Source: Candidatus Bathyarchaeota archaeon
GTDB taxonomy: Archaea > Thermoproteota > Bathyarchaeia > Bathyarchaeales > UBA233
Assembly (NCBI GenBank): GCA_023488835.1
Contig: JAMDCS010000075.1
Location: forward strand, 1-5,539
Length of the DNA: 5,539 nt
Direction: 5' to 3'
Positions 1-5,539 of the stretch are shown here, in pieces. A program made the position numbers and the translations under genes. The notes under the pieces are model-generated. The model saw only the letters and a list, made by a program, of their open reading frames with translations, had not been told where the DNA came from and ran no database searches. How positions within the stretch are numbered: the stretch's first letter is position 1; every line of letters begins with the position of its first letter.

Positions 1-26
1 AACGCTCAGTTTTGCATAGAGCATTT
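1..26. repeat. Left copy of a 26-bp exact direct repeat (possible recombination core site)
   Basis: This 26-bp stretch is identical to 749-774 inside the integrase gene; identity stops at base 27. It touches the window edge, so the match may continue to the left. It has imperfect dyad symmetry: AACGCTC on the left and GAGCATT on the right, one mismatch between the arms, with an 11-bp centre. Arms flanking a short spacer are typical of tyrosine-recombinase core sites. On the minus strand the integrase frame is present (MLYAKLSV), but a TAA lies five sense codons upstream of that Met, so it is not joined to another open gene inside the window. It could be an att site or the start of a duplicated integrase 3' fragment. 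The repeat is certain; its role is inferred. Confidence 0.85.
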
Positions 27-82
27 TAGTGTTTCCGAATTATATGCTAATTTGCTTGAAGAGATGGGATACGGTCTAGCTG

Positions 83-1534
83 TCAATATGTGTTCTTCTC
101 CTTTCGTAAATAATGCCTGCCTGTCGTGCGATTATAGTTGTATTCCAAATAGCCCTCAAGTCCTAGGCGGTTCATTTTTTCGCTATAGTCTGGGTCTATC
201 TCACAGATTTCAACAGGTTGCTCCCATTGTTTGTCGCTGCCGTAGATTCGTTCAGAGATTGGCGCGTAGACTTTCACGTATTTATCAGAGTTTTCGCCTA
301 ACAGGTTTGCTACTGCATCGGAATTGCCTTTGAGGTATCTTTCAAGAACTGCTCGCCAATGCCTGTTGCTATAGAACGTGATTTTCTCTAGTTCTGGCAT
401 TCCCAAAGCCTTAGCCGCTCGTTTTCGTGCTCGCCTAAAGCTATTCCCAGCCACATCAGTATCTCTATAGGTAAATATTCGGTCAACATTTCTTTGTTTT
501 CTGTTTTGGCGTATCGTTCCATTTGGTGAAGTTGCAATATTAAACTGTGTTTTCTTCCATTCTGCTAGCATTCCGATGACTTTAACAAAATTGCCTTTCA
601 ATTGGACTGTTCTTGTTCTGCCATGCTTAGCTGGGTGATTAATTGCAATTGTATTTCTAACGAAATCTATGTCTTTCCACTCAATTCTAAGAGCCTCAAT
701 AGGTCTAGCAGCAGTTGCCATAAGAACAAAGCAGAAAACCTGCATCTGAACGCTCAGTTTTGCATAGAGCATTTCCATATGGTTAGGAAGTGGCAGGATA
801 TACTCTGGTGTTCTGTATTCGAAGTGCGGTATCTTAACGTCATTTATGTGAAGATAGTGTTTGACGAAGCTAGTGTATGCCTTACAGTAACCATTTTTGT
901 TACCATTTGTCCATGTGCTCATTACAGGGTCGAAAGCAAGTTTCCGTTTAAAGTCTTCTGGGTCAAAGAGGTTTATTTTAAATTCAGCTGCCAAGCGTTT
1001 CAGGCGGGAAACATATTTGCTTAAGGTTAAGTCGTTGGTTTTATGCTCTACTTGGATATACTGCTTGTAGTCTGCAATTACTATATCGATGCCGTGGTCA
1101 TCCAGTTTTACCTTCTGCGAAACGCATAATTCTTGTTTCTGCGCTTCGATCAAGTTTTTCGACACTTTCCCTTCTATTTGTTTGTCGCCTACTTGAACGC
1201 TTTCAGTATTACGACTTTGGCAATTTAAAGGCTCGCTTGAGATAGATAATAAGTAATTTTCAGCTGTTTGTTTTGCCTTTATCATGTCAACTGGATCGCT
1301 AAAGCGGCGTCCACAGTCCCGGCATAGATAGCGTTGTATTTTGACGCCAAATTCTGATGTTGTTTTTCCATTTCGAAATATTTTCAAGCTTTTGCAATCT
1401 GGACAAGCTAGGGGGATTTGGGTGCTGGCGTCGGCGGTTGTAGTAACCGACTTATCATCTGCGAAGGGACCGACTTTATCATCCTTAAATAATTGCTCAC
1501 CGATAAGACCAACTTTTCCCTCCCCGTTAACCAT
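83..1534 (-). CDS. Tyrosine recombinase/integrase with N-terminal zinc ribbon
   Basis: A 483-aa site-specific recombinase expected to integrate and excise the element. Residues 44-74 form a transposase-type zinc ribbon (C44-x2-C47 ... C71-x2-C74, followed by GRRF). Residues about 150-235 look like the SAM-like core-binding domain. The catalytic domain starts near residue 250. R277 (AARPIEAL) fits Arg I, K303 the beta-hairpin lysine, R391 (in YSNRHW) Arg II and Y423 (KVYAPI) the nucleophile. The spacings R391 to 414 (23) and 414 to Y423 (9) match XerD-like enzymes. Two usual histidines differ: the HxxR position is Y388 and the LGH position is E414 (LLGENS). The ATG at 1534 has a strong AGAGGAGG with 8-nt spacing and lies 3 nt after the upstream stop, as the last gene of the operon. 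Codons 254-262 contain the 26-bp repeat. The family is secure; full activity is not. Confidence 0.94.
   Translation of the reverse strand: MVNGEGKVGLIGEQLFKDDKVGPFADDKSVTTTADASTQIPLACPDCKSLKIFRNGKTTSEFGVKIQRYLCRDCGRRFSDPVDMIKAKQTAENYLLSISSEPLNCQSRNTESVQVGDKQIEGKVSKNLIEAQKQELCVSQKVKLDDHGIDIVIADYKQYIQVEHKTNDLTLSKYVSRLKRLAAEFKINLFDPEDFKRKLAFDPVMSTWTNGNKNGYCKAYTSFVKHYLHINDVKIPHFEYRTPEYILPLPNHMEMLYAKLSVQMQVFCFVLMATAARPIEALRIEWKDIDFVRNTIAINHPAKHGRTRTVQLKGNFVKVIGMLAEWKKTQFNIATSPNGTIRQNRKQRNVDRIFTYRDTDVAGNSFRRARKRAAKALGMPELEKITFYSNRHWRAVLERYLKGNSDAVANLLGENSDKYVKVYAPISERIYGSDKQWEQPVEICEIDPDYSEKMNRLGLEGYLEYNYNRTTGRHYLRKEKNTY
749..774. repeat. Right copy of the 26-bp exact direct repeat, inside the integrase gene
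   Basis: Identical to bases 1-26. It covers integrase codons 254 (part) to 262 (EMLYAKLSV), at the junction between the DNA-binding N-terminal half and the catalytic half, only 15 residues before Arg I. Recombination between the copies would remove about 748 bp carrying all catalytic residues. An attachment site inside the integrase gene is known from SSV-type archaeal integrases, where integration splits the gene. Here the gene is intact, and the second copy lies 57 nt past its stop codon. Confidence 0.85.
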
Positions 1535-2948: not shown

Positions 2949-2974
2949 TGACCTTCTCCACCCTTTACCTCAAT

Positions 2975-2983
2975 TTACAGTAA
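2975..2983. promoter_or_regulatory. Operator box TTACAGTAA beside the proximal leftward TATA box
   Basis: On the minus strand a TATA-like TATTTAATTA (2990-2981) runs into the box TTACTGTAA (2983-2975). The TATA lies about 38 bp from the RHH ATG at 2948, so transcription would start near 2960. A protein on the box would cover the core promoter. The box is single here but identical to boxes at other promoters of the window. Confidence 0.55.
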
Positions 2984-3019
2984 TTAAATAGCCCTTTTGA
3001 CGCGTTCCAAATATAAGTT

Positions 3020-3038
3020 TTACTGTAAGTTACTGTAT
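3020..3038. promoter_or_regulatory. Paired operator boxes with 10-bp phasing, distal leftward promoter
   Basis: TTACTGTAA at 3020-3028 and TTACTGTAT at 3030-3038, start to start exactly 10 bp, so both face the same side of the helix. On the minus strand they directly follow the TATA-like CTATTTAAATA (3046-3036) and would sit between TATA and start site. This could be a second promoter of the leftward operon with a leader of about 65 nt. The AT palindrome could also serve the other strand. Confidence 0.6.
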
Positions 3039-3097
3039 TTAAATAGGGGATCGCCTGTTCGACAACTATACAAACATCTTATATATATCACAGCAAT

Positions 3098-3116
3098 TTA
3101 CAGTACATTACAGTAT
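3098..3116. promoter_or_regulatory. Paired operator boxes with 10-bp phasing, rightward RHH promoter
   Basis: TTACAGTAC at 3098-3106 and TTACAGTAT at 3108-3116, again exactly 10 bp apart. A TATA-like CTTATATATAT lies upstream at 3078-3088, which would put the start site near 3110. A second TATA-like TATATTTAAA follows at 3114-3123, which would give a nearly leaderless transcript for the ATG at 3147. In either case bound protein would interfere with promoter use. Confidence 0.6.
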
Positions 3117-3146
3117 ATTTAAAGGAACCAACGCGAAGGACAACCA

Positions 3147-4462: not shown

Positions 4463-4487
4463 TTATAATTACAGTAAATTACAGTAA
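4463..4487 (+). promoter_or_regulatory. TATA-like box with paired 10-bp-phased operator boxes
   Basis: TTATAATT (4463-4470) runs into TTACAGTAA at 4469-4477, and a second TTACAGTAA follows at 4479-4487, exactly 10 bp apart. Over 18 nt the pair differs at one position from the minus-strand reading of the pair at 3020-3038. The start site would be near 4490. The next gene is 290 bp away, so the direct product is a long leader or a short RNA. Confidence 0.62.
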
Positions 4488-4489
4488 AC

Positions 4490-4625
4490 TTAGCGAAAAA
4501 GAAAGCACGAAAGATAGGGAAAAAATAAGCGTTCTAGGGTCGCGAAAACGCGAAAAATCTCTTAAGTTTTCGCCTAGTAAGCGACTAGTTTCGAATAAAC
4601 GTTTAACGTCTAAAGTTTATTTTTT
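4490..4625 (+). ncRNA. Candidate regulated short RNA or 5' leader with nested stem-loops
   Basis: Predicted from a promoter at 4463-4470 to a terminator at 4594-4625. The body holds a two-tier stem: outer GTCGC (4539-4543) with GCGAC (4581-4585), inner GCGAAAA (4550-4556) with TTTTCGC (4567-4573) and a 10-nt apical loop. The left side of the inner stem is part of a tandem CGCGAAAA repeat (4541-4556), so an alternative pairing register exists. The ends are estimates. It may be an independent RNA or an attenuating leader for the gene at 4778. Structure and promoter are seen in sequence; transcription is inferred. Confidence 0.4.
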
Positions 4626-5156: not shown

Positions 5157-5539
5157 ATGTTTGAAGGCACAAAATATTTAGAAACCAAGAACCTACCGCT
5201 TAAGGAAATCGCTAAAAAAGTCAAAGCCGAAATCCTACAAACCCACACAGAAATCAAAGTCAGCGTAAGGTCCAAAGACTACAGCTCAATAGACGTCGAA
5301 ATAATCGAAATCCCCAAAGACTTCCAACCCTTCAAAAAAGAACCCCTTACTCAAGGCTCCCCATACACAACATATCGAACCACAGATACAGGCCAGCAAC
5401 TTCTAGATGACATAGAAAACCTTTTAGACGCCTACAACCGCAAAGACATCGACAGCCAAACCGACTACAGCAACGTGCGATTCTATACATACGTGTTTTT
5501 CAGCTTCGAAATCAGCCAAGCTTCCCGAAACTCAAGCAG
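5157..5539 (+). CDS. LPD29-like mobile-element protein (partial, runs off the window)
   Basis: Open from ATG 5157 to the window end (127 codons, 3' end missing). Only a weak purine-rich site precedes the ATG, so coupling to the upstream gene 16 nt away is possible. The segment LPLKEIAKKVKAEI, then IKVSVRSKDYSSIDVEII, and near the end LLDAYNRKDIDSQTDYSNV with RFY resemble, by eye, the LPD29 domain (large polyvalent-protein-associated domain 29). Family members have a KEIAK-type helix, a FSVR...S-I-x-V strand pair and a YN...S...DY...FY motif. LPD29 is common in phage and plasmid polyvalent proteins and as small stand-alone genes; its biochemical role is unclear. This supports a mobile-element origin. 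Assignment is from memory of the motif, without a search. Confidence 0.75.
   Translation, partial: MFEGTKYLETKNLPLKEIAKKVKAEILQTHTEIKVSVRSKDYSSIDVEIIEIPKDFQPFKKEPLTQGSPYTTYRTTDTGQQLLDDIENLLDAYNRKDIDSQTDYSNVRFYTYVFFSFEISQASRNSS

What the first reader, a model, noticed from the sequence alone, without database searches (positions are those of the whole stretch)
1..774. 26-bp direct repeat that cuts the integrase gene between its two halves
Bases 1-26 equal 749-774 exactly. The inner copy encodes integrase residues 254-262, just before the catalytic residues; the outer copy is 57 nt beyond the stop. The repeat has recombinase-core-like dyad arms. Recombination between copies would delete or exchange the whole catalytic half. 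Inference: an SSV-like att site inside int, a duplicated int 3' end just left of the window, or a self-switching recombinase whose C-terminal cassette can be replaced. It may also be an assembly artefact, since the copy sits at the window edge.
Basis: partly seen in the sequence, partly recalled or inferred. Interest (0 to 1): 0.72.

Follow-up and report, generated by a model that had tools for sequence, protein, structure and literature searches.

The report
Contig-end join mimicking an att repeat
The 26-base repeat is really in the sequence, but its outer copy is simply the last 26 bases of the assembled contig, where a normal archaeal virus-type integrase region appears to have been joined by mistake to its own gene just short of the tRNA gene that this integrase family targets; it is most likely ordinary.

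Summary
Observation confirmed: bases 1-26 equal 749-774 exactly. But the window is almost certainly a whole contig: its integrase is listed on one contig of 5539 bases. The outer copy is the contig's end, so 26 is only where the contig stops. In 13 of 23 distinct loci with integrase relatives, including all nine first found, tRNA-Arg(TCG) follows int on the same strand, 81-100 nt past the stop in those nine. In 9 of 11 close relatives AAATG sits exactly 29 nt before that tRNA. The window's tail fits the family up to this AAATG; its last 21 nt fit at chance level and instead repeat the window's own integrase, where AAATG also stands. So the contig appears to leave the true path at a 5-nt microhomology about 29 nt before the expected tRNA. 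Relatives agree at only 15-20 of the 26 bases (8 of 12 examined), so the copy is self-derived. The 26-mer is in 0 of 256 related genomes with up to 3 mismatches and not in IMG/VR exactly. Best reading: chimeric contig end. A real 748-bp tandem duplication or circle is not excluded without reads. The att-inside-int and cassette-switching readings are not supported.

The parts
1..21 (-). last 21 nt of the contig (read on the minus strand): copy of the integrase interior, out of place relative to the family's pre-tRNA sequence
   Evidence: matches 11 relatives at chance level in the family register (4.9 of 21 against 5.4 for shuffles); identical to 749-769
22..26 (-). AAATG, the 5-nt microhomology at the join; in 9 of 11 relatives AAATG lies exactly 29 nt before tRNA-Arg(TCG)
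27..82 (-). tail downstream of int; its part next to AAATG fits the family's pre-tRNA sequence
   Evidence: 15 nt ending in AAATG (22-36) match 9.2 of 15 on average, 0 of 5000 shuffles reach it
83..1534 (-). intact tyrosine recombinase (integrase), 483 aa, with N-terminal zinc ribbon; PF00589 at residues 258-424
749..774 (-). inner copy of the 26-mer: ordinary coding sequence, codons 254-262
   Evidence: 15-20 of 26 identical in the 8 of 12 relatives in which the place was located

Best explanation
The repeat is a contig-end chimera. The contig follows true sequence through the integrase stop and its downstream tail up to AAATG, about 29 nt short of the tRNA-Arg(TCG) gene that should come next. 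There it jumps, at the shared 5-mer AAATG, into the integrase gene at codon 254, runs 21 nt and stops. Shown: exact repeat flush with the window's end; family fit up to AAATG and loss of fit exactly after it; the copy is self-derived; the tRNA is the neighbour of int in close relatives. Inferred: that the window is a whole contig, that the jump arose in a chimeric read or in the assembly, and that the contig stops here because the tRNA/attachment region is shared by several genomes. The integrase itself is an ordinary intact archaeal integrase whose attachment site probably lies beyond its stop, in that tRNA gene.
For: Integrase listed on one contig of 5539 bases = window length. tRNA-Arg(TCG) downstream, same strand, in L001, L002-L009 (L010 is the contig of L001, and L008 and L009 are identical here) and L021, L022, L024, L027: 13 of 23 distinct loci; int stop to tRNA 81-100 nt in L001-L009. 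AAATG exactly 29 nt before the tRNA in 9 of 11. The window's 15 nt up to AAATG fit best at exactly that offset (9.2 of 15; next best offset 7.0; 6 of 1105 window 15-mers, taken every 5 nt on one strand, do as well at any offset), while the 21 nt after it fit at chance (4.9 against 5.4 for shuffles; relatives among themselves 11.6-15.1). Free sliding of the 21-mer gives nothing special (313 of 1104 window 21-mers do as well). Relatives' own 26-nt segment differs (15-20 of 26 in 8 of 12), so the outer copy comes from this very sequence. In 8 relatives the longest exact match between int (partial in some) and the tail is 8-11 nt. Contigs of relatives do end at the tRNA: 2, 28 and 48 nt past it in L021, L022 and L023 (the last a tRNA-Pro), 3 of the 16 loci (contig lengths). 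26-mer with up to 3 mismatches in 0 of 256 genomes; exact in 0 IMG/VR contigs.
Against: No reads are available, so the join was not seen to lack support. Such ends are not common: of 264 ends of 132 whole MAG contigs, 5 repeat 20 nt or more of their own contig, and by eye these are two tandem arrays, a CRISPR-like array and both ends of one inverted pair; none is a distant direct repeat like this one. Those contigs come from other assemblies. Two of 11 relatives (L004, L009) lack the AAATG. The place where the family fit was tested came from an alignment, not from prior knowledge.
Confidence: 0.8

Rival explanations
1. A real rearrangement in part or all of the population: a tandem duplication of about 748 bp (int 3' half plus tail) or an excised 748-bp circle, formed at the AAATG microhomology. 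The contig end is then the true junction.
For: The order of sequence at the end (int, tail, int again) is just what such a junction gives; the copy is identical to self.
Against: None of 8 relatives tested shows a long int match in its tail; the contig stops after 26 nt instead of running on through a second copy; the 26-mer was found nowhere else.
Confidence: 0.13
2. A second, partly degraded integrase of a neighbouring element lies between int and the tRNA, and the contig has just entered it.
For: Decayed int C-terminal remnants beside tRNA-Arg exist in related genomes (L006, L024, L027), and one MAG holds two int-tRNA places (G002).
Against: Relatives' segments match only 15-20 of 26, whereas this copy is 26 of 26; none of the 8 tails tested holds such a remnant.
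Confidence: 0.05
3. A 26-bp attachment or switching site inside the integrase gene (SSV-like or cassette exchange).
For: Location just before the catalytic residues; imperfect dyad. Three relatives change over within int at about residues 222-226, some 30 codons from the repeat: L005 by a frameshift in a run of A, L006 and P0051 by a switch to unrelated sequence; this may be chance or decay.
Against: In close relatives the tRNA lies outside int, and ARAGORN finds no second tRNA in those loci; 4-nt longest match to that tRNA; dyad common (6.6% of 26-mers); PF16795 not among matches; full-length relatives on very long contigs, e.g. 480 aa on a 921,688-base contig (P0047).
Confidence: 0.02

Closest known systems
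Type II (non-splitting) archaeal tyrosine integrases, as described in PMC8371274 (passages read)
   Same: Intact integrase gene lying beside a tRNA gene in close relatives; archaeal hosts.
   Different: N-terminal zinc ribbon; the window itself ends before the tRNA, so its own att site was not seen.
SSV-type 'suicidal' integrases (PMC8371274, passages read)
   Same: Archaeal tyrosine recombinase.
   Different: Those carry att inside int and PF16795; neither was found here.
Chimeric contig ends of metagenome assemblies (recalled; no paper read on them)
   Same: Terminal stretch duplicates another part of the same contig, joined at a short microhomology.
   Different: Reads and assembler are unknown, so the exact cause is not shown.

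Membership tests
SSV-type suicidal integrase | attachment site inside the int gene, shared with a tRNA gene | tested here: not met
   longest match of the 26-mer to the family's tRNA-Arg (L009 copy) is 4 nt; tRNA lies beyond the int stop in L001-L009
SSV-type suicidal integrase | Phage_integr_3 domain PF16795 (PMC8371274) | tested here: not met
   hmmscan with E up to 1 lists PF00589, zinc ribbons and weak others, not PF16795
SSV-type suicidal integrase | int split in int(N)/int(C) at the ends of the provirus | tested here: not met
   full-length relatives beside the tRNA (L002, L003, L009, L021); broken ones (L004-L007, L024, L027) break at other residues than 254-262, and L001 is cut by its contig edge
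Type II tRNA-targeting archaeal integrase | tyrosine recombinase catalytic domain | tested here: met
   PF00589 41.3 bits, cut-off 27.1; phrog_1 integrase
Type II tRNA-targeting archaeal integrase | tRNA gene as attachment site next to an intact int | tested here: inconclusive
   arrangement seen in relatives, but the window ends before the place; attL and attR of one provirus were not both recovered
Real 26-bp direct repeat | both ends of both copies bounded by diverging sequence | tested here: not met
   the outer copy is cut by the window's end, inferred to be the contig end
Chimeric contig end | junction lacking read support | not testable with these tools
   no reads held

The most novel reading that the evidence does not exclude
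The junction is real: part of this population carries a tandem copy or a 748-bp circle of the integrase's catalytic half, made at a 5-nt microhomology, which would give an alternative or silenced integrase end right before the attachment tRNA.
Probability: 0.07. Interest if true: 0.45.

Novelty: not a real feature. Interest (0 to 1): 0.08.

Why it matters
It removes a tempting false lead: a repeat flush with a contig end has no measured length and should not be read as an att core. It also places the likely true attachment site of this integrase family, tRNA-Arg(TCG) about 80-100 nt beyond the int stop, just off the window.

Tried and rejected
Own-genome search: none held. 26-mer in IMG/VR: none. 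Plasmids (megablast of the window) and phages (tblastn of the integrase): no match. Solved structures with the int alignment: 5 zinc-finger chains only, uninformative for the catalytic half. Viral relatives of two neighbouring ORFs: none. The idea that the 21 nt might be native pre-tRNA sequence in a shifted register was tested and rejected. The dyad as evidence of a recombinase core was rejected by its base rate.

Rows dropped: the first fit test left out L004 and L009, which lack AAATG; one search repeats it with all 11. L008 was left out as identical to L009 there. L022, L023, L026, L031 and L034 (more distant) were not in the fit test. In one search the 26-nt place was not located in L007, L022, L024 and L027. 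Of 139 control loci fetched, six partial contigs and two under 1 kb were left out, and L002 was added, giving 132; they come from seven genomes plus L002, mostly by arbitrary contig number, but some were taken because they bear int relatives. L017-L020 and L035 were not scanned for tRNAs.

The names given for neighbours in relatives (larB/C/E, SPFH, ABC transporter, capsid genes) are my reading of the translations and come from no profile search.

Full report
What was claimed.

Check. The repeat is exact. The inner copy is codons 254-262 of an intact 483-aa integrase, ORF 83-1534 on the minus strand, which matches PF00589 over residues 258-424 and has an N-terminal InsA-type zinc ribbon. The outer copy is the first 26 bases of the window. 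The protein search lists this integrase on one contig whose length, 5539, is that of the window, so I infer that the window is a whole contig and the outer copy its end. The repeat length is thus set by the contig end and may be meaningless.

Relatives. 94 proteins match the integrase, itself included; the best other by score is 72% identical, partial ones reach 79%. Few carry an organism name: two Candidatus Bathyarchaeia, one Thermoproteota, one Crenarchaeota, and one Acidoferrales bacterium. One genome-contig scan gave 6 loci, whose titles name Bathyarchaeota or Bathycorpusculum, and two IMG/VR scans gave three distinct contigs. In the class of one of these genomes, 19 of 256 genomes hold a relative at E <= 1e-30. 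ARAGORN finds tRNA-Arg(TCG) downstream of int, same strand, in L001, in L002-L009 and in L021, L022, L024 and L027. Of the other ten new loci, four have another tRNA in that place (tRNA-Pro in L023 and L026, tRNA-Val in L031, tRNA-Arg(GCG) in L034), four show tRNAs in other arrangements (L029, L030, L032, L033), and two show none (L025, L028). From int stop to tRNA is 81-100 nt in L001-L009. After the tRNA, L005 and L006 carry what I read as chromosomal genes, L001 and L009 what I read as viral head genes. So the likely attachment gene of the close family is this tRNA, outside int.

The join. Eleven close loci were aligned between int and tRNA. Nine of 11 have AAATG exactly 29 nt before the tRNA. 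The 15 nt of the window tail ending in AAATG match the 11 at 9.2 of 15 on average, reached by 0 of 5000 shuffles, with the best offset exactly 29; 6 of 1105 window 15-mers do as well at any offset. The following 21 nt match at 4.9 of 21, against 5.4 for shuffles and 11.6-15.1 among relatives. Letting the 21-mer slide gives no fit beyond what 313 of 1104 window 21-mers give. The tail therefore looks native up to AAATG and foreign after it. The foreign part equals the integrase interior, where AAATG stands too. The corresponding 26 nt, located in 8 of 12 relatives, agree at only 15-20 places, so the copy comes from this same sequence.

Why a contig would end here. Contigs of relatives end 2, 28 and 48 nt past the tRNA in 3 of the 16 loci listed (lengths). 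In genome G098 a second tRNA-Arg(TCG), 99% identical, lies on another contig and shares with the contig that ends there the tRNA and the two bases after it. That the attachment region breaks assemblies is my inference from this. Contig ends that repeat their own interior are not common: 5 of 264 ends, none of the same type.

A result that cuts the other way. Three relatives change over inside int at about residues 222-226: L005 by a frameshift in a run of A, L006 and the protein P0051 by a switch to unrelated sequence.

Judgement. Chimeric contig end, about 0.8. Real duplication or circle, about 0.13. The attachment-site and switching readings are unlikely: no occurrence of the 26-mer in 256 genomes with up to 3 mismatches or exactly in IMG/VR, no tRNA similarity, PF16795 not among the matches (the defining statement is from passages of PMC8371274).

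Literature. I saw the listings of four searches and passages of PMC10848311, PMC11705971 and PMC8371274. None of the passages that I read describes this integrase family; I make no wider claim about what is in print.

Noticed in passing
window 2965-2983, 3019-3041, 3088-3121, 4466-4492: Related TTACAGTA-type repeats, direct and inverted, around the divergent region next to a small ribbon-helix-helix-like gene (2775-2948, weak profile hits); they look like operators.
   Followed up: partly
L006 5923-6736; L024 (int match 1501-1971): Decayed integrase C-terminal remnants directly upstream of tRNA-Arg(TCG) on long MAG contigs (127,827 and 1,138,178 bases); the tRNA there seems to keep a virus-derived upstream region.
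   Followed up: partly
L005 about 6595; L006 about 6001; protein P0051: Three relatives break within int at about residues 222-226 (frameshift in a run of A in L005, unrelated sequence before it in L006 and P0051).
   Followed up: partly
G004:C22, locus L188: Sequence after a tRNA-Arg(CCG) gene closely resembles, by eye, the viral sequence after the tRNA in L001; possibly the other end of a related provirus.
   Followed up: partly
L002 1-160: The contig begins in what looks by eye like a CRISPR array.
   Followed up: no
L105 (G084:C90), both ends: Terminal inverted repeat of 101 nt at the two contig ends.
   Followed up: no
window 83-220 (C-terminal end of int): Strong conservation of the integrase's last 40 or so residues, beyond the Pfam match, across the family.
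   Followed up: no
L007 285-2881: The integrase reading appears interrupted: residues 244-364 and 369-483 lie about 1.9 kb apart.
   Followed up: no
window 5157-5537: Partial ORF with a weak match to LPD29 (PF18847), below its cut-off.
   Followed up: no
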